Assembly (NCBI GenBank): GCA_013153635.1 | Contig: JAADDZ010000020.1 | Span: 1 to 64,000, forward strand | Direction of reading: 5' to 3' | Length of the DNA stretch: 64,000 nucleotides | Source of the DNA: Aquificota bacterium | GTDB taxonomy: Bacteria > Aquificota > Aquificia > Aquificales > Hydrogenothermaceae | Part shown: positions 48,480 to 59,608 of the stretch, in pieces | Layout: every line of letters begins with the position of its first letter | Numbering within the stretch: the stretch's first letter is position 1 | The notes under the pieces: generated by a model | Database searches by the model: none | Told to the model about the DNA's origin: nothing | What the model saw: only the letters and a program-made list of their open reading frames with translations | Made by a program: the position numbers and the translations under genes

Positions 48480-50468
48480 ATGAGCAAAAGTCCTTTTAAA
48501 TTAATTTCTGAATTTGAGCCAAAGGGAGACCAGCCAAAAGCTATACAACAGCTGTATCAAAATCTGAAAAATGGAGTTAATGAACAAGTTTTATTAGGTG
48601 CTACAGGAACAGGAAAAACATTTACTATAGCTAATGTTATCCAAAAGTATGGAAAACCTACTCTTGTAATATCCCACAATAAAACCCTTGCGGCACAGCT
48701 ATACAGGGAGTTAAAAGAGTTGTTCCCGAATAATGCGGTAGAGTATTTTGTCTCTTACTATGACTATTACCAACCAGAAGCTTACCTCCCAGAAAAAGAT
48801 GTGTACATCGAGAAAGACAGTTCTATAAATGACGCTATAGATAGGCTTAGACATTCAGCTACAAGAAGCTTGATAGAGAGACCAGATACAATAGTAGTTG
48901 CTTCTGTATCATGTATATACGGTCTAGGTACTCCAGAATTTTACGAAAAGCTTAGACTACATCTCTATGTAGGACAAGAGTTGGACAGACAAAATTTACT
49001 AAAAAAACTGGTAGACCTTCAGTACACAAGAGATGATTTTTCTTTTAAGAGGGGTACTTTTTGTGTAAAAGGAGATACTGTTGAGATTTTGCCGTCTCAT
49101 ACTGAAGACATTATCTTAAGGGTTGAGTTTTTTGGTGATGAGATAGAAAGCATCACCGAGCTAAATCTATTTAACAGGAATGTTAAAAGAACCTTAGAGA
49201 GAACTGTTATCTTTCCTGCTAGTCATTATGTTATACCAAGACCTGACATGGTAGATGCTATAAAACATATAAAGGCAGATTTAGAAAAAGAGGTAGCAGA
49301 GTTTAGAAAAGAAGGAAAAGAGATAGAAGCTAATAGGCTATGGCAAAGGACTAATTACGATATAGAGATGATGTTGGAGTTAGGTACTTGTAAAGGGATA
49401 GAGAACTATTCTAGATATTTTGATGGTAGAAAACCGGGAGAACCTCCGTATACTCTTATAGACTACTTTCCTGAAGATTTTCTACTAGTGGTAGATGAAT
49501 CTCATGTCACAATACCTCAAATAAGAGCTATGTACAACGGAGACAGAAGAAGAAAAGAAAATCTAGTTAAGTATGGTTGGAGGATAAAATCTGCATTTGA
49601 CAATAGACCTCTAAAATTTGATGAATTTTTGAAAAAGATACAAAAGGTTATATATGTGTCAGCTACCCCTGCTAACTGGGAGATAGAAAGGAGCAAAGGG
49701 GTTATCGTAGAGCAGATAATAAGACCTACAGGTCTTCTAGACCCAGTAGTAGAGGTAAGACCTACCCAAAATCAGATAGACAACCTTGTAAGTGAAATAT
49801 GGGAGCTGAAGAAGAAAGAAGAAAGAGCCATAGTTATAACCCTAACAAAAAAGATGGCAGAGAATCTAGCTGACTATCTAGAAGAGAGAGAGATAAAGTC
49901 TATATACCTTCATTCAGAGATAGACACGATAGAAAGGGCAAAAATAATAAAAGAGCTAAGAGAAGGTAAATATGATGTTGTAGTTGGGGTAAATCTCCTA
50001 AGAGAAGGTTTGGACATGCCAGAAGTCTCTTTGGTAGCTATTTTAGATGCAGATAAACAAGGCTTTCTAAGGTCTAAAACAGCTCTTATCCAGATAATAG
50101 GAAGAGCCGCAAGAAATATCCATGGAAAAGCTATCTTATATGCCGACAAGATAACCCCAGCAATAGAAGAGACTCTAGAAGAAACAAACAGGAGAAGACA
50201 GATTCAAAAAGAGTACAACCAAAAGTATGGTATAACTCCAAAATCAGTATCAAAAGAGATAAAAGAGCTTATAGCTTTAGAGGATATAGGTCTGATACAA
50301 GAGTACAACGACCTTCCTGAAGGTATCCAAACTGAAGAAGAGCTATTAAAAGAGATAGACAAACTAGAAAAACAGATGTGGGAACATGCTAAAAACTGGG
50401 AATTTGAAAAAGCCGCAGAGTTAAGAGACAAGATAGACAAACTTAGAAAACTTATTGGGGTTGTTTAA
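48480..50468 (+). CDS. uvrB: Excinuclease ABC subunit B
   Basis: About 662 residues. The start [22 protein letters not shown] is canonical UvrB; an upstream extension of 65 residues has no conserved content and is rejected. Walker [13 protein letters not shown] (near 40), beta-hairpin [12 protein letters not shown] (near 93), Walker B VVDESHV, helicase motif [11 protein letters not shown], and the C-terminal UvrC-binding helix pair ([23 protein letters not shown]). Acts in nucleotide excision repair with UvrA and UvrC. It overlaps the convergent glycosyltransferase by 17 bases. Confidence 0.96.
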
Positions 50469-53337
50469 CAGTTTTTTTCTCTAAAAGCTTAGAAAACATT
50501 TTAAAAAACTCTTTAGTTAGTTTTTTGTCTCTAGGTTTTTGAAAAAGCTCCAAAAAGGTTCTATCTAGCTCTTGGTTTCCGTAGAGTTCTTGTGTATAAA
50601 TTCTGGCTTTTACAGTCTGCTCTATATTTTCTCTTTTTCCTTTTTTACCAAGTAAAAAATCGTACATTCCTAGATACATAGCTCTTAAGAGATGTTTGCT
50701 GTGTTTTATTATTGGATAAATATCTAATAACTCTTTTAAAGAACTAGAATATTCAAAATCTTTCGTTTTTTCTTCTAACAGAAAGATATTTCTCGAAAAG
50801 TAATATACTGAAACTACCGATTTTAAAAATCCTCCTATAGAACCTCCTCCTTTGTGATATATATGGGTGTAAGGTGTGTACAGATGAAGAATATTTCTTC
50901 GCTTTACGTTTTGGGTAAAGTGGTTATCCTCAAAGTACAAGAAAAAGTCCTCGTCCCAGTAACCAACATCTTCTATAAGGTCAGTTTTAAACAAAATGTT
51001 AGCTCCAGATAAAATCAATGGTATTTTAATGATGTCTAGACTGTCCGTTTTACCACCTAGAGATACAACTTTTCCATCATACTGAACTTTTGTCCTATCT
51101 TTGAAATCCTTTATTTTACAAGTTACTAAAGGAGCATCATAAACAGCAGAGGTTTTTAACATCTCTTCCAAAGTATCTTTTTGTACAACTGTATCCGGAT
51201 TCAAAACCCATATATAGTCAGCCTTATTATTTTGGGCTATCTGGATACCTAGATTATTCCCTCCCCCAAAACCTAGGTTCTCTTTTGACTTTACTACAAT
51301 CACATCTCTATCAAAAGATATAACTGCGTTTTGTATCTGTTCTTGATACAGATATTTTGTATCTACTCCTAAGTCCTGTATCTGTTTGTACAGACTTTTT
51401 GGATATTCCTCGCTGTGAGAATTATCAATCACTACAATAGATAAATTAGGGTAGTCCTGCTCTAACAAAGATTTTATAGAAAAAAAAGTGTCTTCTATGT
51501 TTTGATAACTTACTAAGATAACTACTACTTTTTGGTTTATCCTTGTATCGAGTTTGGAAAGGTCTGCATTTTTACCTCTAATACTAAACATAAATTTATA
51601 TCTCTCTCCTTTTGGGATAAACCAGTCTATACCCCATAGTTCTGTAGGGTGTGGCACATTTCCATATCCGTAATACTCTATCAGCTTATCTGCAAGTTTG
51701 TCTGTACTTTCTTGTACCAGTTTATCTATTTTTAAACTGTTTTGGGTTTTGAAAGATTCTTGACCTTTATGGTATATGTAACTATCTAAAGCTACTTTTA
51801 GTTTGTAACCATTTTCTCTAAGTCTCCAGCATATTTCAAGGTCGTCATTCCCTAAAAATAGGTCTTCATCAAAGTAACCTACCTCCTGTAAGATTTCCCT
51901 TTTGGTTGCAAAGCAAAAACCTATGAGTAGTTTTGAAAAAACTGATTTTTTATAATTTTTATTTTTTATATAGTTAGCTAACAAATCTACATTCTTCTCA
52001 TCAAAATCTACAAGTTCTGGGAAATATGAGATATACTGTTGAAAAGGAACAGCGTAACTGGACAACGGAGCTACCCCTCCAATATCCTCTGAAGTAAAAT
52101 GCTGTAAAAGGCTGTCTATCCAACCATCAGGTACAATAGTATCTGGATTGAGAAAAATAATGTTTGGGTTTTTGGAAGCTTTAATCCCTATATTTATAGC
52201 CTTTGGATAACCTAGATTCTGCGGATTTAATATGATTTTTAGATTTTTGTGGTTTAATCCTTTTAGTAGTTTTACTGTACCATCTGTAGAGCTGTTATCC
52301 ACTATGACCAGCTCATCTTCCTCTGAAAGGGAAGGCAAAACAGAGTTTAAGAAATTTTCCAAAGTCCTTTCAGAATTATAAGTTACAGTAATCACACTCA
52401 CCGGCTCTCTATCTTGTTTTTTGTACAGTCTTTTATTGTACTCTACAGCTTTGGTTACGAAGTTTTTAAATCTCTGTCTTATATCCTTTTGGGTGTCTAA
52501 ATCTGGATATTTTGAAAGATTTAACAAACCATAGATAAAAGATGTTAACTGATATTTTTTTTCTTCTTTGGTAATATTAAATTCCCTATTAAAAAAGTCA
52601 TTTTCTACGAAAAAAAAGGTTTCTTCAAACCCCCTCATCATCACATCTGGGTTACATTGGTCGTTAGTCCCATCTATCCTAAATAAAGACAAAGGCTCTG
52701 ATATATATGCAACTTTACCTTTCTTTGCTAGCATCAACCATGTAAACCAATCTGCATTTGCTCTAAAACTAAATTTACCTAACTTAAAAAGTTCAAAATC
52801 TACGTCCCTTTTTCTAAATAAAAAGGTAGAAAACTCTCCAATATAGTTAGACAGATTTAATAAAGTAACTTTACCTACAACCTTTCCATCTATTACAGTA
52901 TCCTCATTAAACAGTTTTCTGGTAGCTGGAATATCATCTGTTGATAAAGGATTTAGATACTTATCTACCGCTATCCTAGCAGAGGTTGCTACTTTTACTT
53001 CTGGATATGTATCTAAAAAATAGGATAGTCTCTCCAAAGCTTGCGGTAAAAGATAATCATCTTCAGCTAACCATTTTATATAATCTCCTGATGCATGATT
53101 AAATAAAGCTCTAAAGTTAGCAACTGGACCGATATTCTTTTTATGTTTTATATATCTGATAAAATCGTATTTTTTTATATAGTCTTTTATAGTTTCATAA
53201 TTTTGGCTATCTTTTGGGTTGTCATCTGCTATTATTACCTCATCTGGTAGCCGTGTCTGTTTTAGTACACTTTCTAATGCTTGTTTTAAGTAATCTGGAC
53301 GGTTATAAGTTGGAATTAAAACAGATATTTTTGACAT
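50452..53337 (-). CDS. Triple-domain GT2 glycosyltransferase
   Basis: A 961-residue protein with three successive family 2 glycosyltransferase domains. Domain 1 (about 1-290): [38 protein letters not shown]. Domain 2 (about 300-560): [35 protein letters not shown]. Domain 3 (about 580-900): [31 protein letters not shown]. Each keeps the D-x-D-like metal site. Likely adds or extends a glycan on a surface structure. A sigma-28-like promoter lies upstream and flagellin genes are nearby, so flagellin is a candidate acceptor (inference). Confidence 0.82.
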
Positions 53338-53372
53338 TAGGTTACCTACTTAGGTTTTTCTTTATGTTAGAC

Positions 53373-53400
53373 TTATCGGTCTAAGCTAGATGCTGAATTA
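53373..53400 (-). promoter_or_regulatory. Sigma-28-like promoter of the triple GT2 gene
   Basis: Minus strand: TAAT (53400-53397), 16 bases, ACCGATAA (53380-53373), seven of eight to the flagellar -10. It is 36 bases before the start, in the gap after the methyltransferase. The -10 also sits in a small inverted repeat (TTAGAC/GTCTAA), an alternative reading as a hairpin without a T-run. Confidence 0.5.
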
Positions 53401-53402
53401 AT

Positions 53403-54959
53403 CTATCCCAAAATAGAAGATTGGAATGTCTGCTCTATATCTATATGATTTTGAAATCTCTTAATATCGTATTTAGGAAATATAGATTGTATGGTTGAAA
53501 ATATGAACTGTTCTTTTGTCATACCTTGTACGAAAGGTGCAAAATCTTCCCAGAGATACAAAAGATTTCTAAACAGTACAAAATCAATGGTTATATCTGT
53601 TTTTAATCTCCATTTTTTATCAAAAAAGTGCCATCTTCCTTGTTCATCTTCTTTCAGATTCCAGTAAGTAAAATCAATAGCTTCCCCATTTACCAATGGG
53701 TATCCTTGTAAATCTTCTCTACCTGTACCAAAACTTTTTACCAAATTCTCTAAAAGAGTATTATTTATCTGGTGTAATGTTTTGAAGCTGTCTTGGGCAA
53801 ATAGAGCTTTTAGGGCTTTTATGTATATGCTAGTCCCTTTTACCCAATTTTGATTTAACAATCTGTATTCAAAAATCTCGTTTTCTTGTTTTTTTGTATT
53901 TGTGTAGAGAGGAGATTTTTTAACTTTTATCTGATTTTTATCTTTTATTACATCTACAAAGTGGTGATACTCTTTTTTTATAAAAGGTTCATTCCAGTAT
54001 TTTCTAAAAATCCATCTGGTTTTTAGGTTTTTATTTTTTGATTTAGAAGCGAGTACTAAGAAAGAGTTAGAAAATTCAAAAAAAGTTCTAGATTTTAGGG
54101 TGTTTTCTATAAATAAAGGGTCTGAAAATAAAAACGCTCTACTTCCTGAATAATCATTAAAAGAGCCTCTCCATATACCACTTGGATTTAAATCATAAAA
54201 TTCTGTAGTTTCTCTAACAAATATCTTTGGAAGTTTGTAGTCTGGTAGGAGATGATAAAATTGGATATTTTCAAAACCAGCATCTTTTAGTAAGCTCTCC
54301 AACTCATACCTACTGTAAGTAATAGGCGATTTAAATGGGTAGTCGATAATCCCAGAGAACAATACTCCGTTGTGGTCTTCTCTACACCCAGAAAAATATT
54401 TTGCACCTAATTTGTTCTCTATTGAGATTAACAATATCCCTTCTTTGTCTAAGGTATGATACAGATTCTTTAAAAATCTACTAACAGCAGTTTTTCTGTC
54501 TTCTTTTGAGTAAAAAGGTATGTACTCTAAAACACCTACCAATGTAACTAACTGATAGAACTCTTTAGGATAGTTTATCTGTGTAATATCTGCAGTTGTT
54601 ACATGTACATTGTCGTATCTTTTGGTTCGCTCTTTTATTATGGAAGACCTAGCACTGCTCCCCTCTACAGCATCTACATGTTTAAAATTCTGTGCTAGAT
54701 ACCATGTTATAGCCCCTGCACCTGCTCCTAGTTCTAGCACTGTACTATTTTTATCCAAAAGTTCTTGAACACTGTGAATAACAGCAGTTCTCTCTACTGT
54801 AAGATGGTACTTAGAAGCCCAATCTTTTATATATCTATGTAAGTCAAAAGAGTCTCTGTAATTTTTTCTTTTGAAGATTTTATAAAGGTATTTCTCTCCT
54901 CCGTCCATATAAGCTATTTCTGTATTTTGATTGCTGTCTAACACACCTTTTTCACTCAT
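53403..54959 (-). CDS. SAM methyltransferase with long C-terminal extension
   Basis: 518 residues. Class I methyltransferase core near 70-245: VLELGAGAGAITWYLA (motif I), VDAVEGSS, LVTLVGVLEYIPFY, LLISIENKLGAKYFSG. The C-terminal half (about 290-518) is Trp/Phe/Lys-rich with no recognised fold; it ends in segments such as NGEAIDFTYWNL and WHFFDKKWRL that recall kinase-like or sugar-pathway methyltransferase tails. Neighbouring glycosyltransferases suggest a glycan or carrier substrate. A weak sigma-28-like element (TAAG-N15-AACGAAAA) lies in the divergent gap upstream. Confidence 0.7.
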   Translation of the reverse strand: MSEKGVLDSNQNTEIAYMDGGEKYLYKIFKRKNYRDSFDLHRYIKDWASKYHLTVERTAVIHSVQELLDKNSTVLELGAGAGAITWYLAQNFKHVDAVEGSSARSSIIKERTKRYDNVHVTTADITQINYPKEFYQLVTLVGVLEYIPFYSKEDRKTAVSRFLKNLYHTLDKEGILLISIENKLGAKYFSGCREDHNGVLFSGIIDYPFKSPITYSRYELESLLKDAGFENIQFYHLLPDYKLPKIFVRETTEFYDLNPSGIWRGSFNDYSGSRAFLFSDPLFIENTLKSRTFFEFSNSFLVLASKSKNKNLKTRWIFRKYWNEPFIKKEYHHFVDVIKDKNQIKVKKSPLYTNTKKQENEIFEYRLLNQNWVKGTSIYIKALKALFAQDSFKTLHQINNTLLENLVKSFGTGREDLQGYPLVNGEAIDFTYWNLKEDEQGRWHFFDKKWRLKTDITIDFVLFRNLLYLWEDFAPFVQGMTKEQFIFSTIQSIFPKYDIKRFQNHIDIEQTFQSSILG

Positions 54960-55016
54960 TGAAAAACTCCTAAAGCTACTTTTATTGAAGATTTTCGTTA
55001 AAAGCTACAGCTGACT

Positions 55017-55044
55017 TAAATTTTTGTACTCAAAGATTCGATAA
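55017..55044 (+). promoter_or_regulatory. Sigma-28-like promoter of the GT2 gene at 55074
   Basis: TAAA (55017-55020), 16 bases, TTCGATAA (55037-55044). It lies 29 bases before the GTG start. It shares TAAA and CGATAA with the flagellin promoter at 59582-59608. Confidence 0.5.
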
Positions 55045-55073
55045 ATATTTCATAAGATAGTTGGAGGTGTTTT

Positions 55074-56369
55074 GTGAAAATATCAGCTTGTATAATAGCA
55101 AAAAACGAAGAGAAGAATCTCCCTAGGTTACTAAAGAGTATAAAAGATAAATTTGATGAGATTATCCTTGTGGATACAGGCTCTACAGACAAAACTATAG
55201 ATATAGCCAAGAACTTCAGCTGTAAAGTCTTCCAGAAAGATTGGAAAGGTTTTGCTGATGCTAGAAATTTTGCAGTCTCAAAAGCTACAGGTGATTGGAT
55301 ATGGCATTTTGATGCAGATTTTGAGTTAGAGAACTCCCAATATCAAAAAGCGGTATTCTTTTTAAAGAACATTCCCCAAAGCTATGACGCAGTTATGATA
55401 GGAGTCAAAAATTTTGATAAAAACGGAATAGTTACCACATACTCTTCACAGATTTTTATCCACAGAAATAAACCTAATATAAAATGGGTAGGAAAAGTTC
55501 ACGAATATATAAATGTAGATGTATCCTATGGAATACCTGTTTTTGTGAATCATTACGGTTATCAAGATAATGAGATTTTGTACAAAAAAGCTCAAAGAAA
55601 TCTTAAGCTTTTGGAAGAAGAGATTAAAACATTAGAGAGAGATTCCCAAGAGTATCTTTTTAAGCTGTTTTACATAGTTCAATCATACGTAGTTTTTTTT
55701 AGTACGAAAAAATCTGACAGTACTCTTTACAAGAAAGTAGAAAAATATATAAACGAATATCTAAACATAAAACAGACCTTTCACAAAGGAAGAGGTATCA
55801 CTATTTTTGATAATCACATATTCTCATACGCTTTAACCGTATATATCTCTCAAAAAGAGTTTAAAAAAGCAAAACAGATGCTAGAACATCAACTTATAAA
55901 AGATAGTTCATATCCAGATATTGTGTACTATCGAATCCTTGTAGAAAATCACTATAAGAATTACAAAGAGTTAGTAGAGCAGATAATAAATTTTGTAGAA
56001 ATCCTAGATAAAGCCAAAAAAAACCTCTTTTTAAATGGGGAAAACAAAGTTATAGAATCTGCAAACAAGATAAACCAAATTTTAAACTTACTACAAGAGC
56101 CTCTATCAAAACTAGACACAGTTACCAAAGAATCTTTTGAAAAAAAAGCTTTACAGATTTTCAAAGCTACAAAAGGGGAAAATTCTGGATTAGTTTTGTA
56201 CAAGATTTTAAAATCCCTAAAAAAAGACCACCAAGCCAAAACATTACTGAAAAAACTCTCCCGATTATCTAATGACAAATTATCTACCTTAAGGGTAGCT
56301 GTAGAGATGGTAAAAGAAGGGGAAAAAGAACAAGCAAAAAAGATACTTCAAACTATCCATAAAGTCTAG
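55074..56369 (+). CDS. GT2 glycosyltransferase with helical-repeat C-terminus
   Basis: 431 residues. The N-terminal GT2 domain has ISACIIAKNEEKNLPRLLKSI, IILVDTGSTDKTIDIAK, WIWHFDADFELE (metal site) and KWVGKVHEYI, about 1-160. The rest is helical, TPR-like (KAKQMLEHQLIKDS, KILKSLKKDHQAKTLLKKLSRL). This class often modifies proteins or surface glycans. GTG start with GGAGG at good spacing, behind a sigma-28-like promoter. It converges with the flagellar chaperone genes, overlapping by 4 bases. Confidence 0.8.
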   Translation: MKISACIIAKNEEKNLPRLLKSIKDKFDEIILVDTGSTDKTIDIAKNFSCKVFQKDWKGFADARNFAVSKATGDWIWHFDADFELENSQYQKAVFFLKNIPQSYDAVMIGVKNFDKNGIVTTYSSQIFIHRNKPNIKWVGKVHEYINVDVSYGIPVFVNHYGYQDNEILYKKAQRNLKLLEEEIKTLERDSQEYLFKLFYIVQSYVVFFSTKKSDSTLYKKVEKYINEYLNIKQTFHKGRGITIFDNHIFSYALTVYISQKEFKKAKQMLEHQLIKDSSYPDIVYYRILVENHYKNYKELVEQIINFVEILDKAKKNLFLNGENKVIESANKINQILNLLQEPLSKLDTVTKESFEKKALQIFKATKGENSGLVLYKILKSLKKDHQAKTLLKKLSRLSNDKLSTLRVAVEMVKEGEKEQAKKILQTIHKV

Positions 56370-56608
56370 AACTTGTATTCTTTTAGATTCGACTTGTCAG
56401 AGATAGCTTTTACAATCTCCATCTGTTTTTCTGAAATTTTTGATATTACATAGTCTACTTTTTTCAACAGGAAATCTACCTCTTCTTTATTGAGAGAAGA
56501 AAGGTCTATATCCCCAAATGAAAAATCCTTAGGAATCTCCCCATTTTCTAACCTTATTAGTATCTCATCTAACTTCTGCTCTATAGCTTTTTTTCTATTT
56601 CCTCCCAT
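56366..56608 (-). CDS. Small helical protein in FliT position
   Basis: 80 residues, charged and helical (KKAIEQKLDEILIRLENGE, EEVDFLLKKVDYVISKISEKQMEIVKAI). It follows fliS with a 28-base overlap, the place where FliT or another export chaperone is usually encoded. No sequence signature of FliT is recognised, so the role is inferred from position only. Confidence 0.5.
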   Translation of the reverse strand: MGGNRKKAIEQKLDEILIRLENGEIPKDFSFGDIDLSSLNKEEVDFLLKKVDYVISKISEKQMEIVKAISDKSNLKEYKF

Positions 56609-56949
56609 CCTTCCCTCAATAGTTCCATAATCTCTATTAGCTCTCTCAATAGAGTTACATCATTTCTTGCATTTACAATTACCATCTGGTCTAGAATAAA
56701 TGTGTATAACATGTGTAAATTTTGAGCAATCTCTCCACCTTTCTCAAAATCTAAAAATGAATCAAGAGCATTTATCACCCTTTCTATCTCATAGATACTT
56801 TCTATCTTTCCTTTCAAATCTCCTGTTTGGATACTCTCGTCAGCAACTTTCATAAGGGTTATAACTTTCTCATACAGGAGAACTATCTGTTTTATCGGAG
56901 AAGCTGTCTCTACACTTGTTTTAACATATGTATCATATGGATTTACCAT
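56581..56949 (-). CDS. fliS: Flagellin export chaperone FliS
   Basis: 122 residues. MVNPYDTYVKTSVETASPIKQIVLLYEKVITLMKVA is the classic FliS N-terminus, binding the flagellin C-terminal helix to keep it unfolded before export. Four-helix bundle length is normal. It lies 4 bases after fliD. Confidence 0.88.
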   Translation of the reverse strand: MVNPYDTYVKTSVETASPIKQIVLLYEKVITLMKVADESIQTGDLKGKIESIYEIERVINALDSFLDFEKGGEIAQNLHMLYTFILDQMVIVNARNDVTLLRELIEIMELLREGWEEIEKKL

Positions 56950-56953
56950 CTAT

Positions 56954-58264
56954 CTATCCTCCCTGATTTATTGAACCAAAAGATTGAGAAAGTCTAGATT
57001 TTACATCTTCCATCTGTGCCATAAGCATCTGAAGAGAGATAAACTGTTTTTTTAATGTTTCTATCTCTATATCTATCCTTTTTGTCATAAGTTCTATTCT
57101 TTCTTCTATGTTATCTATCTGTTTGTCAAAAGATTTCTCTTTTAGCTTTACTGGACTTTGTGTTCCTGTGGCGTATATAAAGTAGTCATAAAGGTTATTT
57201 TTTAGGTCTTCAACAACGGTTTTTACTTGAGAAACATCTGTAGAAAGCAAGTTATCTAACTGTAGGGTATCTAAATTGATGTGACCGGTGTTTTTATCTA
57301 CAGATATAAGATTTTTGTCCATTAAAGGCTGAAGCTTTTTAAAAATCGTACTCCTTATCTGCTGAAGAGAAAATTCTCCAGATAAAATCCCGTCTTTCCC
57401 TGTATTTTCTGTTATAAAATCTACCATCTGGTTGTACTTATCTATAAACCCTTTTAAATCTTCTTTGAAATCTGTATAGTCATTTTGAACTGTGATATTA
57501 ACAGGAGAAGATGAGACAGCCTTTGCAGTTATAGACAGTCCTGTTATAACATTATCAAATCTGTTTGTTTGGCTTGTTACTGTAACACCATAAACAGAAA
57601 TCTCTGCATCTTGGGCAGTTTGAGCATGGTTTAAACCACCAAGAGTAGATATTAGATTTCCATTATCAGTGATGTTTATTGTATTGTCTGCTCCTGTATC
57701 TAGACCTTTTATAAGTAATCTATAATTTGTCCCATCATAGAATATAGATGCTTTTATGTTCAAGTTATTATCCACTGCTTGGGCGTTTATCTTATTTACG
57801 ATACTCTCCAAAGAATCTGTGCTATCGTAATTTACAGTAATACTGTTCCCTCCATACGATATATCTAAAGACGAGGAAACTAAAGAAGTTATAGGAGATG
57901 TTTTATCTGTTAGTCCTGAACCTGTCAACCAAACGTCATTTTGGGCTAATTTGTTAACAGTTATGTCGATGTTAGAGCTAGATAAAGCTAGGTCATCTGT
58001 TATATTTGCCTCAAGCACTGACTCATCAGACACAAATACCGCTTTCTTTTCTAATTTTGTTATGTCTGAAATCTTATCTAAAGAGTCTTGCATATCTTTT
58101 AAAATGTCACCAAAACTAGAGATAGCTTCTTTTTTAGCTAATATCTGACTTTCTCTTTGCTGTAAAAAGACTATCTGCTGGCTTTTTATAGCTCTTATAT
58201 TTTCTAACATCTGGGCGTAATCAAAATTTCCTGCAAGGTTGCTTAGATAAATTTCGCCAGCCAT
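56954..58264 (-). CDS. fliD: Flagellar filament cap protein FliD (HAP2)
   Basis: 436 residues. N-terminal coiled-coil region (DYAQMLENIRAIKSQQIVFLQQRESQILAKKEAISSF) and DVWLTGSGL as in HAP2-N; central beta domains (about 100-270, SNIDITVNKLAQ, VTSQTNRFDNVITGLSITAK); C-terminal coiled coil ending LQMLMAQMEDVKSRLSQSFG. Caps the filament and promotes flagellin assembly. Starts 3 bases after flaG. Confidence 0.88.
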   Translation of the reverse strand: MAGEIYLSNLAGNFDYAQMLENIRAIKSQQIVFLQQRESQILAKKEAISSFGDILKDMQDSLDKISDITKLEKKAVFVSDESVLEANITDDLALSSSNIDITVNKLAQNDVWLTGSGLTDKTSPITSLVSSSLDISYGGNSITVNYDSTDSLESIVNKINAQAVDNNLNIKASIFYDGTNYRLLIKGLDTGADNTINITDNGNLISTLGGLNHAQTAQDAEISVYGVTVTSQTNRFDNVITGLSITAKAVSSSPVNITVQNDYTDFKEDLKGFIDKYNQMVDFITENTGKDGILSGEFSLQQIRSTIFKKLQPLMDKNLISVDKNTGHINLDTLQLDNLLSTDVSQVKTVVEDLKNNLYDYFIYATGTQSPVKLKEKSFDKQIDNIEERIELMTKRIDIEIETLKKQFISLQMLMAQMEDVKSRLSQSFGSINQGG

Positions 58265-58267
58265 TAT

Positions 58268-58627
58268 TTATGCCTCCTTATTAAATAGTAACCCTACAAG
58301 CTCATCTAACTTTTTTGCTAATTCTAAGAGATGTTCTGGAGGAATCTGCCTAATAACTTTATCTGTTTTTTTGTCTATTATCTTTACTACAGGTTGGTGA
58401 AGTTCTTTATCAATCTCGATTTTCAGATATTTATTCATGTAATCAAACTTATCTTTCATCTTTTTGAATAAGTCTTCTAACTCTTCTTTTGAGAACTCTT
58501 TTAGAGATTGCTGATTCTCTTTTTGGACTGTAGTTGTACTTTTCTGTAACTGATTTTTTATCTCTAAATCAGAAGAACCTTGAGATACTGCCTTATTTAA
58601 AACATTATCAATGCCTTTGATTTCCAT
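58268..58627 (-). CDS. flaG: FlaG-family protein
   Basis: 119 residues. The C-terminal domain KYLKIEIDKELHQPVVKIIDKKTDKVIRQIPPEHLLELAKKLDELVGLLFNKEA is the FlaG signature, thought to influence filament length. The N-terminal half is Gln/Lys/Ser-rich. AAAGGTG precedes the ATG. It follows the fliC terminator, so readthrough or a separate promoter is needed. Confidence 0.88.
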   Translation of the reverse strand: MEIKGIDNVLNKAVSQGSSDLEIKNQLQKSTTTVQKENQQSLKEFSKEELEDLFKKMKDKFDYMNKYLKIEIDKELHQPVVKIIDKKTDKVIRQIPPEHLLELAKKLDELVGLLFNKEA

Positions 58628-58648
58628 GGCATCACCTTTAGAGTTTAA

Positions 58649-58672
58649 TTAAAAGGGGAGACCCCCTCCCCA
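58649..58672 (-). terminator. Terminator between fliC and flaG
   Basis: Minus-strand stem GGGGAG/CTCCCC with loop GGGGT (58671-58655), then TTTTAATT. It is about 7 bases past the fliC stop. The other strand also has a T-run (ATATTTTTTA) after the stem. Partial readthrough would set flagellin above fliD/fliS levels. Confidence 0.75.
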
Positions 58673-58678
58673 TATTTT

Positions 58679-59542
58679 TTATCGGAGTAACTGTAGAACA
58701 AGTTGAGGAAGCTGATTTGCTTGAGCCAGCATAGCTGTACCAGACTGCATTAATATCTGTCTTCTTGTGAACTCTGCCATCTCTTTGGCAAAATCAACAT
58801 TTCTTATACGAGATTCTGCTTCTTCAGTATCGATTTTTGCTGATTGATTATTACTTATGATTTTTTCTAACTCTATCTGATATGCACCAAATTTTGCCGC
58901 CATATCGTCAACCGCTTTGATTAAAGCATCTACTACTGATACTGCATTATTAGCTTTTGTTTGAGAAGTTACATCGATAGTATAAGCTGTAGCTCCTATT
59001 GTTAAAGTTGCTGGTGCAGTACTAGAACCTTCGGCACCTGCCGCCGCCGCTGTGGCTACTACCATAGCTAACTCTTGGTCTACTCTTCCTCCATAGTGGA
59101 TAGTAAACGTCTGTGCGCCTGCAGAAAAAACTTTTCTACCGTTGAACTCTGTATCTGCGAATATCTTTTCTATAGCATCTATTAGACCGTTGATGTCCTG
59201 CTGGAGCTGTTTTCTATTGGTTGCATCATTCGTTTCGTTTGCGGCTTGGATAGCTTTTGATTTTACATCGTTTAAGATATTGTAAACTTCTGATAACGCA
59301 CTTTGAGCTATCTGGGCTAAGCTAACTCCATCTTGCGCATTTTTTATACCTCTGTCTAAAGATACTGCATATGTTCTAAGCTGATTGGCGATGTAGTAAC
59401 CTGCCGCATCATCAGCCGCTCGATTGATTCTATACCCAGTAGCTAACCTTTCTAAAGATTTGTTCATGTAAAATTCGTTCTTTAGAAGGTTAACATGGGT
59501 AAAGTTAGCTTGGAAGTTGTAGTTGATTCTTAAAGCTCCCAT
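58679..59542 (-). CDS. fliC: Flagellin
   Basis: A 287-residue compact flagellin. N-terminal D0/D1: RINYNFQANFTHVNLLKNEFYMNKSLERLATGYRINRAADDAAGYYIANQLR and IKNAQDGVSLAQIAQSAL. C-terminal D1/D0: ESRIRNVDFAKEMAEFTRRQILMQSGTAMLAQANQLPQLVLQLL. The variable middle (about 155-205) is short, with an Ala/Gly/Ser/Thr-rich stretch (TAAAAGAEGSSTAPATLT) that offers possible O-glycosylation sites. Strong AAGGAGG. Behind a sigma-28-like promoter. The main structural protein of the filament, exported by the flagellar apparatus. Confidence 0.95.
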   Translation of the reverse strand: MGALRINYNFQANFTHVNLLKNEFYMNKSLERLATGYRINRAADDAAGYYIANQLRTYAVSLDRGIKNAQDGVSLAQIAQSALSEVYNILNDVKSKAIQAANETNDATNRKQLQQDINGLIDAIEKIFADTEFNGRKVFSAGAQTFTIHYGGRVDQELAMVVATAAAAGAEGSSTAPATLTIGATAYTIDVTSQTKANNAVSVVDALIKAVDDMAAKFGAYQIELEKIISNNQSAKIDTEEAESRIRNVDFAKEMAEFTRRQILMQSGTAMLAQANQLPQLVLQLLR

Positions 59543-59581: not shown

Positions 59582-59608
59582 TTATCGGAGGCGTTTATAA
59601 ATTTTTTA
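59582..59608 (-). promoter_or_regulatory. Sigma-28-like promoter of fliC
   Basis: Minus strand: TAAA (59608-59605), 15 bases, TCCGATAA (59589-59582). This is a near-perfect flagellar sigma promoter, about 40 bases before the fliC ATG. Confidence 0.75.

What the first reader, a model, noticed from the sequence alone, without database searches (positions are those of the whole stretch)
50452..59542. Candidate flagellin-modification island
A three-domain GT2 protein, a methyltransferase with an unknown C-terminal half, and a GT2-helical-repeat protein flank fliC-flaG-fliD-fliS. Two of the three carry sigma-28-like promoters. Flagellin is short with a Ser/Thr-rich middle. Modification of flagellin with a methylated glycan chain built by three GT domains is a testable idea, and could stabilise filaments in heat.
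Basis: inference. Interest (0 to 1): 0.7.

Follow-up and report, generated by a model that had tools for sequence, protein, structure and literature searches.

The report
Flagellin sugar-coating genes, likely phosphate-capped
Next to the gene for its short flagellum protein, this heat-loving bacterium carries three enzymes that probably build a small sugar chain on the filament and seal it with a methylated phosphate, reusing a sealing enzyme otherwise known from bacterial surface polysaccharides; this is a new combination within a known kind of system.

Summary
The window is from a Hydrogenothermaceae (Aquificota) genome.

The helical-repeat GT is a GmaR/SunS-type protein glycosyltransferase (best PDB match: GmaR GT domain, E=5e-29). 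Orthologs occur in 11 of 41 family genomes. In seven they lie directly upstream of fliC, the slot held by Maf in other genomes, and they accompany only ~285-300 aa flagellins. In one genus the whole filament cassette, with this GT, is swapped against a long-flagellin cassette between near-identical flanks.

The methyltransferase's "unknown half" is not unknown. The full-length protein is homologous to methyltransferase-kinase O-antigen terminators of the Klebsiella O7 type: all six published SAM-site residues and the catalytic Asp are conserved. It lacks the coiled-coil ruler, and its genome lacks Wzt_C, so it cannot be an ordinary O-antigen terminator.

The three-domain GT2 has three motif-intact domains, lies near the initiator GT in four of five genomes that have both, and decays together with fliC in one genome.

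Best reading: GmaR-like initiation on flagellin, extension by the triple GT2, and (less certain) phosphate/methyl capping. New variant of a known kind. The heat-stability idea is unsupported. No step is shown biochemically.

The parts
50452..53337 (-). GT2x3: 961-aa protein of three GT2 domains (about residues 1-300, 301-590, 591-900), proposed glycan extender
   Evidence: Pfam three GT2 stretches; catalytic motifs D38/D39-D93D94, D347-N397xD399-D490-D498D499, D638-N713xD715-E796-E803D804 invariant in six orthologs
53373..53400 (-). sigma-28-like promoter TAAT-N16-ACCGATAA of GT2x3
   Evidence: p about 0.023 per 210 bp; degenerate in sister genome G002
53403..54959 (-). MTkin: 518-aa methyltransferase-kinase, proposed phosphate/methyl capping enzyme
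   Evidence: Methyltransferase Pfam; full-length homologs next to Wzm/Wzt; six SAM-site residues and catalytic Asp of Klebsiella O7 ORF6 conserved
53403..54212 (-). C-terminal kinase-like half of MTkin (residues 250-518) with D429-x4-N434...D447-x2-W450
   Evidence: D429 and N434 invariant in four full-length homologs and present in gut homologs
55017..55044 (+). sigma-28-like promoter TAAA-N16-TTCGATAA of GT2rep
   Evidence: p about 0.023 per 210 bp; the GT2rep operon of G001 has TAAA-N15-ACCGATAA
55074..56369 (+). GT2rep: GmaR/SunS-type protein glycosyltransferase with helical (weakly TPR-like) C-terminal part, proposed initiator on flagellin
   Evidence: PDB GmaR E=5e-29, SunS E=5e-16; conserved slot directly 5' of fliC in 7 of 11 genomes
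56366..56608 (-). orf80, conserved small ORF overlapping the end of fliS
   Evidence: homologs detected after fliS in two relatives, similarly sized ORFs there in others; no Pfam match
56581..56949 (-). FliS
   Evidence: PF02561 E=5e-31
56954..58264 (-). FliD
   Evidence: PF07195/PF02465
58268..58627 (-). FlaG
   Evidence: PF03646 E=5e-26
58679..59542 (-). FliC, short flagellin (287 aa), presumed acceptor
   Evidence: PF00669/PF00700; middle 60 residues 22% Ser/Thr
59582..59608 (-). sigma-28 promoter of fliC, TAAA-N15-TCCGATAA
   Evidence: identical elements in most relatives' fliC

Best explanation
A flagellin O-glycosylation island. GT2rep, a GmaR-type GT2 with a helical docking region, puts the first sugar on Ser/Thr of the short flagellin's exposed 60-residue middle in the cytoplasm. 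GT2x3 extends it by up to three sugars, its second and third domains resembling rhamnosyltransferases. MTkin, a stand-alone O-antigen-type methyltransferase-kinase without the coiled-coil length ruler, phosphorylates the last sugar and methylates the phosphate, capping a short oligosaccharide. Shown: gene content, homologies, conserved linkage, conserved active-site residues, sigma-28 site at fliC. Inferred: the acceptor, the order of action, the sugars and the cap.
For: GT2rep: closest solved structure is GmaR, a flagellin O-GlcNAc transferase (PMC9638930). Orthologs are in 11 of 41 family genomes, all with short flagellins (Fisher p=0.002, not phylogeny-corrected), and directly 5' of fliC in seven. 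Maf (PF20157) holds that slot in G004, G006 and G013 and is absent from G000. Cassette swap: flanks 86-98% identical between G015 and G008/G024 while FliS/FliD/FlaG are 31-39% identical. GT2x3: near GT2rep in four of five genomes with both; broken together with fliC in G014; all three domains keep their motifs. MTkin: same strand as GT2x3 and adjacent in G000, linked in G002; family residues Y28/Y66/G91/G93/E112/Y158 and D441 of Klebsiella O7 ORF6 map to Y17/Y51/G78/G80/E99/Y146 and D429; no Wzt_C in G000. Sigma-28-like sites. Precedents: GT1+GT2/methyltransferase at C. difficile type B flagellin (PMC5207246); phospho-methylated amino-acid caps on C. difficile type A and P. aeruginosa b-type flagellin (PMC10714395, PMC11833859).
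Against: No glycan data. MTkin is confined to two genomes of one genus, and its relatives with readable context serve ABC-exported polysaccharides. GT2x3 lies far from flagellar genes in G009, next to UDP-galactopyranose mutase. The window's GT2rep lacks the last ~70 residues of its orthologs. MTkin has no own sigma-28 site. The kinase-fold test failed for want of an alignment.
Confidence: 0.6

Rival explanations
1. Split function: GT2rep alone (or with GT2x3) glycosylates flagellin, while MTkin, and perhaps GT2x3, decorate lipopolysaccharide or another surface glycan and merely sit nearby.
For: MTkin's full-length homologs sit directly 3' of Wzm/Wzt O-antigen exporters; GT2x3 of G009 is far from fliC beside GLF, and in G001 beside WbqC and DegT; a GT9 heptosyltransferase lies beyond fliC in the window.
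Against: No Wzt_C domain in G000 or five relatives and no coiled-coil ruler in MTkin, so the known O-antigen role cannot operate as described; GT2x3 has a sigma-28-like site, lies near GT2rep in four of five genomes and decays with fliC in G014.
Confidence: 0.25
2. Type-A/b-type chemistry: the kinase-like half helps to attach a phosphodiester-linked methylated amino acid or similar group, not a simple methylphosphate.
For: Phospho-N-methylthreonine caps exist on flagellins of C. difficile 630 and P. aeruginosa PAO1 (PMC10714395, PMC11833859); G011's cluster carries a CDP-glycerol phosphotransferase-like protein (PF04464), the kind of fold reported for CD0244.
Against: No PF04464 protein among the genes examined at the window locus; MTkin matches the methylphosphate terminator at all published active-site residues.
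Confidence: 0.08
3. Decayed or inactive island: the truncated, relocated and inverted GT2rep no longer initiates, and flagellin is unmodified in this species.
For: GT2rep ends ~70 aa early and no remnant is found downstream; its position at the far end of the fliC operon was not seen in the relatives read.
Against: GT domain intact, with a sigma-28-like site and no internal stop; the neighbouring genes are intact and conserved at 59-67% identity with G002.
Confidence: 0.07

Closest known systems
GmaR of Listeria monocytogenes (flagellin O-GlcNAc transferase and antirepressor) and SunS peptide glycosyltransferase
   Same: N-terminal GT2 domain homologous over 184 residues to GmaR (E=5e-29) and to SunS (E=5e-16); helical C-terminal region; linkage to flagellin
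   Different: 431 aa instead of 637, so no room for GmaR's full linker and antirepressor part; TPR signal only weak (E about 0.02); donor sugar unknown; below the NCBIfam SunS cut-off
C. difficile type B flagellin locus (GT1-GT2-GT3; PMC5207246)
   Same: Initiating GT2 beside fliC, then a multi-function extender and methylation; short oligosaccharide on flagellin
   Different: Here the extender has three GT2 domains and the methyltransferase is a separate methyltransferase-kinase
Methyltransferase-kinase O-antigen terminator of Klebsiella O7 (ORF6-N; PMC11231755)
   Same: Methyltransferase plus AmiN-like kinase half; all published SAM-site residues and the catalytic Asp conserved
   Different: No coiled-coil ruler, no fused GT, no Wzm/Wzt neighbour, no Wzt_C in the genome; sits at a flagellin locus
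WbdD of E. coli O9a (PMC3482155)
   Same: Kinase then methyltransferase, capping a glycan
   Different: Not detected by sequence; the O7-type kinase is reported as distinct from WbdD's
Geobacillus and Enterobacteriaceae flagellin glycosylation islands (PMC5109656, PMC4875605)
   Same: Variable GT/methyltransferase cargo beside fliC, Maf in some and other GTs in others; thermophile precedent
   Different: A word search of the two papers found no 'kinase' and no 'tetratricopeptide'

Membership tests
Flagellin glycosylation island | glycosyltransferase genes beside fliC | tested here: met
Flagellin glycosylation island | linkage conserved across species beyond chance | tested here: met
   GT2rep directly 5' of fliC in 7 of 11 genomes; Maf in the same slot in three others
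Flagellin glycosylation island | shared flagellar (sigma-28) regulation | tested here: inconclusive
   fliC clear; GT2rep and GT2x3 p about 0.023 each; MTkin none
Flagellin glycosylation island | glycan on flagellin | not testable with these tools
   needs mass spectrometry
GmaR-type flagellin glycosyltransferase | homologous GT2 domain | tested here: met
   E=5e-29 to 22ao
GmaR-type flagellin glycosyltransferase | C-terminal TPR region | tested here: inconclusive
   weak TPR matches; last ~70 aa missing in the window copy
GmaR-type flagellin glycosyltransferase | O-GlcNAc transfer to flagellin | not testable with these tools
   enzymatic
Methyltransferase-kinase O-antigen terminator (Klebsiella O7 type) | SAM-site residues Y28, Y66, G91, G93, E112, Y158 | tested here: met
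   Y17, Y51, G78, G80, E99, Y146
Methyltransferase-kinase O-antigen terminator (Klebsiella O7 type) | catalytic Asp (D441) in the kinase half | tested here: met
   D429, with N434 at +5, invariant in four homologs; aligned through the Pseudomonas homolog L085, whose Asp is D443; the O7 sequence itself was not at hand
Methyltransferase-kinase O-antigen terminator (Klebsiella O7 type) | coiled-coil length ruler | tested here: not met
   protein ends after the kinase half
Methyltransferase-kinase O-antigen terminator (Klebsiella O7 type) | Wzt with C-terminal glycan-binding domain in the genome | tested here: not met
   PF14524 absent from G000 and five relatives, present next to three homologs
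Maf-type flagellin nonulosonic acid system | Maf N-terminal domain PF20157 | tested here: not met
   absent from G000, G001, G002

The most novel reading that the evidence does not exclude
An O-antigen-type methylphosphate terminator, stripped of its length ruler and exporter coupling, has been recruited to cap a flagellin O-glycan begun by a GmaR-type enzyme, so that the filament of this thermophile is coated with methylphosphate-capped oligosaccharides.
Probability: 0.4. Interest if true: 0.65.

Novelty: new variant of a known kind. Interest (0 to 1): 0.52.

Why it matters
If true, it joins two glycan worlds usually treated apart, the chain terminators of exported O-antigens and cytoplasmic flagellin glycosylation, and predicts a flagellin decoration (methylphosphate on sugar) that can be looked for directly by mass spectrometry. 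It also brings GmaR-type flagellin glycosylation to Aquificota and shows it exchanging with Maf, and with a long-flagellin cassette, at one locus. That makes the question of what filament glycans are for (a substitute for outer flagellin domains?) testable by comparing sister species.

Tried and rejected
Maf/nonulosonic acid system: rejected, no PF20157 in the genome. Plain sugar methyltransferase: rejected for the C-half, because full-length homologs and the D-x4-N...D motif point to a kinase. Ordinary O-antigen terminator: rejected for lack of ruler and Wzt_C. WbdD homology by sequence: none found. Structure prediction of MTkin: single-sequence model pLDDT 36, two-sequence model of the C-half pLDDT 45; the Foldseek search with the latter gave only noise, so the kinase fold is not shown by structure here. 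Remnant of the missing GT2rep tail downstream: none. Ser/Thr enrichment as evidence for glycosylation: dropped, since the long flagellins without either GT have it too. No paper pairing flagellin with a methylphosphate cap was found in the searched library, which holds open-licence papers only.

Full report
OBSERVATION. Pfam assigns three GT2 stretches to the 961-aa protein, a SAM-methyltransferase to the N-half of the 518-aa protein, one GT2 to the 431-aa protein, and FliS, FliD, FlaG and FliC to the rest. The C-half of the 518-aa protein matches nothing in Pfam even at E<=10. The flagellin is 287 aa; its middle 60 residues are 22% Ser/Thr versus 9% in the conserved ends, but long flagellins of relatives have 20-22% in their middles as well, so this feature is weak evidence. 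With an a priori sigma-28 consensus (TAAA-N14-16-GCCGATAA), fliC has TAAA-N15-TCCGATAA, shared by most relatives' fliC. The helical-repeat GT gene has TAAA-N16-TTCGATAA and the triple GT2 gene TAAT-N16-ACCGATAA; the methyltransferase gene has nothing. Sites as good as the two GT sites occur in 2.3% of random 210-bp pieces of the window.

ORGANISM. A sister genome of the same genus (G002) is a public Hydrogenothermaceae MAG, so the window is from Aquificota. The host genome is 1.69 Mb, 28 contigs, 96% complete.

THE HELICAL-REPEAT GT (GT2rep). The best match among solved structures is the GT domain of Listeria GmaR (E=5e-29), followed by SunS peptide glycosyltransferases (E=5e-16); NCBIfam gives SunS at E=2e-18, below its curated cut-off. 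GmaR transfers GlcNAc to flagellin, and its TPR part is proposed to bind flagellin (PMC9638930). Full-length orthologs (37-53% identical among the seven aligned) are in 11 of 41 family genomes and in none of the 40 genomes of the two other families of the order searched. In G003, G008, G009, G011, G024, G028 and G036 the gene is directly 5' of fliC on the same strand. In three family genomes without it (G004, G006, G013) a Maf protein sits in exactly that place; no genome has both. All 11 genomes with GT2rep have flagellins of about 285-300 aa. Of flagellin-bearing family genomes without it, nine have ~500-540 aa flagellins and six have short reading frames; the six comprise four with Maf, the sister genome G002 whose assembly breaks there, and one incomplete genome (Fisher p=0.002, not corrected for phylogeny). 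In genus g7, genes flanking the locus are 86-98% identical between G015 and G008/G024, while FliS, FliD and FlaG are only 31-39% identical, FliC differs in length (508 vs 286 aa), and GT2rep is present only with the short flagellin. The filament cassette, with its glycosyltransferase, is therefore exchanged as a unit. In the window the gene has been moved to the far end of the fliC operon, inverted, and lacks the last ~70 residues of its orthologs, with no remnant downstream.

THE TRIPLE GT2 (GT2x3). Intact orthologs (33-63% identical per domain) occur in G001, G002, G009, G011 and G016; catalytic motifs are invariant in all three domains. Domains two and three carry NPD motifs, and the protein's best rhamnosyltransferase-model match (TIGR01556) starts in domain two and is below cut-off. 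The gene lies 1-7 kb from GT2rep in G000, G001, G011 and G016, and 590 kb away in G009. In G014 both GT2x3 (13 stops) and fliC are broken, side by side. The dTDP-glucose 4,6-dehydratase needed for dTDP-rhamnose passes its cut-off in G000 and all other GT2x3 genomes tested, but also in genomes without GT2x3, so the donor remains a guess.

THE METHYLTRANSFERASE WITH THE 'UNKNOWN' HALF (MTkin). In Aquificota it exists only in G000 and G002 (2 of 136 genomes; 67% identity). Full-length homologs were found on plasmids of Pseudomonas asturiensis (29%) and Citrobacter braakii (26%), each immediately downstream of an ABC transporter permease and an ATPase with the Wzt C-terminal domain; a human-gut contig shows the same order. 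The Pseudomonas homolog has the architecture published for Klebsiella O7 ORF6: methyltransferase, unannotated domain, spacer, GT2 modules. ORF6-N was shown to phosphorylate and then methylate the terminal rhamnose of an O7 mimic, and its unannotated domain was shown to be the kinase by the D441A mutant (PMC11231755). The reported SAM-site residues Y28, Y66, G91, G93, E112 and Y158 have the same numbers in the Pseudomonas homolog and are conserved as Y17, Y51, G78, G80, E99 and Y146 in MTkin; the catalytic Asp corresponds to D443 and D429, followed at +5 by an invariant Asn. The O7 sequence itself was not at hand, so the correspondence runs through the Pseudomonas homolog. Together this is strong evidence that the C-half is a kinase of that type. 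MTkin stops right after the kinase half: it has no coiled-coil ruler, and G000 and five relatives have no Wzt_C domain. The two features that tie such enzymes to O-antigen export are thus missing, and it should not be filed as an O-antigen terminator although its catalytic module is homologous. A structural test could not be completed: models were of low confidence and the fold search returned noise.

MECHANISM. Most likely: (1) GT2rep attaches the first sugar to Ser/Thr in the exposed middle of the short flagellin before export; (2) GT2x3 adds up to three sugars; (3) MTkin phosphorylates and methylates the end, capping a short chain whose length is set by the number of GT domains rather than by a ruler. 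Step 1 rests on homology plus conserved linkage (about 0.85). Step 2 rests on linkage and co-decay (about 0.65). Step 3 rests on active-site conservation for the chemistry (about 0.8) and on neighbourhood only for the acceptor (about 0.5). Neighbouring islands carry other enzymes beside GT2rep: a sulfotransferase in an operon with a strong sigma-28 site in G001, a CDP-glycerol phosphotransferase-like protein in G011, and methyltransferases in G003, G016 and G024. Variable, often anionic, caps would fit this (inference).

COMPARISON AND NOVELTY. Flagellin glycosylation islands, including thermophile ones with Maf/GT alternation and methyltransferases, are known (PMC5109656, PMC4875605); an initiator GT beside fliC followed by a multi-function extender/methyltransferase is known from C. 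difficile type B (PMC5207246); phosphate- and methyl-containing flagellin glycans are known from C. difficile type A and P. aeruginosa b-type, but made by other enzymes (PMC10714395, PMC11833859). What appears new is the O-antigen-type methyltransferase-kinase at a flagellin locus, the GmaR-type initiator in Aquificota, and its exchange with Maf and with long-flagellin cassettes at one chromosomal site. No prior description was found in the open-licence library, which does not exclude one elsewhere. The heat-stabilisation idea is not supported: species of one genus differ in having the island.

VERDICT. Observation confirmed; flagellin-modification interpretation partly supported and sharpened (phosphate/methyl cap); heat role unsupported. 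New variant of a known kind.

Noticed in passing
L071, L072 versus L081, L082 (genomes G024, G008 versus G015, G020): Filament cassette swap within one genus: flanking genes 86-98% identical between G015 and G008/G024, FliS/FliD/FlaG 31-39%, FliC 286 versus ~508 aa; the neighbouring FlgL-like genes also differ in length (318 versus ~421 aa).
   Followed up: partly
window 55074-56369: The window's GmaR-like gene is inverted, relocated to the far end of the fliC operon and lacks the last ~70 residues of its orthologs.
   Followed up: yes
window 56366-56608: Conserved small ORF (80 aa) overlapping the end of fliS, without a Pfam match; similarly placed small ORFs of ~80-105 aa follow fliS in relatives; possibly a FliT-like chaperone (guess from position).
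   Followed up: no
L063:1086-9307 (G001): Sister species carries GT2rep in an operon with DegT aminotransferase, WbqC, a sulfotransferase and an unknown 286-aa protein under a strong sigma-28 site, with GT2x3 divergent; suggests a sulfated flagellin glycan.
   Followed up: partly
L065:13782-15089 (G011): A CDP-glycerol phosphotransferase-like protein (PF04464) lies downstream of fliS, recalling CD0244 of the C. difficile type A flagellin glycan.
   Followed up: no
L074:6610-12423 (G014): GT2x3, fliC, flaG and fliD all broken side by side while fliS is intact: filament genes and glycan gene decaying together.
   Followed up: partly
L087, L088, L089 (MT836085, MT839147, MT836982): Records deposited as 'Bacteriophage sp.' encode what look like bacterial polysaccharide genes (L087: Wzm/Wzt, methyltransferase-kinase, glycosyltransferases; L088 and L089: methyltransferase-kinase and glycosyltransferases); probably bacterial DNA in virome assemblies.
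   Followed up: partly
G002 contigs C241 and C273 (L070, L077): Both FliS and GT2rep are missing from this assembly, and the contig ends (truncated MTkin, truncated FliD) match the order in the window, so an assembly gap probably hides them.
   Followed up: partly
G023:C255:15093-15581 and G030:C1:452661-453131: Maf-like genes also lie beside long (~505-527 aa) flagellins, so Maf is not confined to short flagellins.
   Followed up: no
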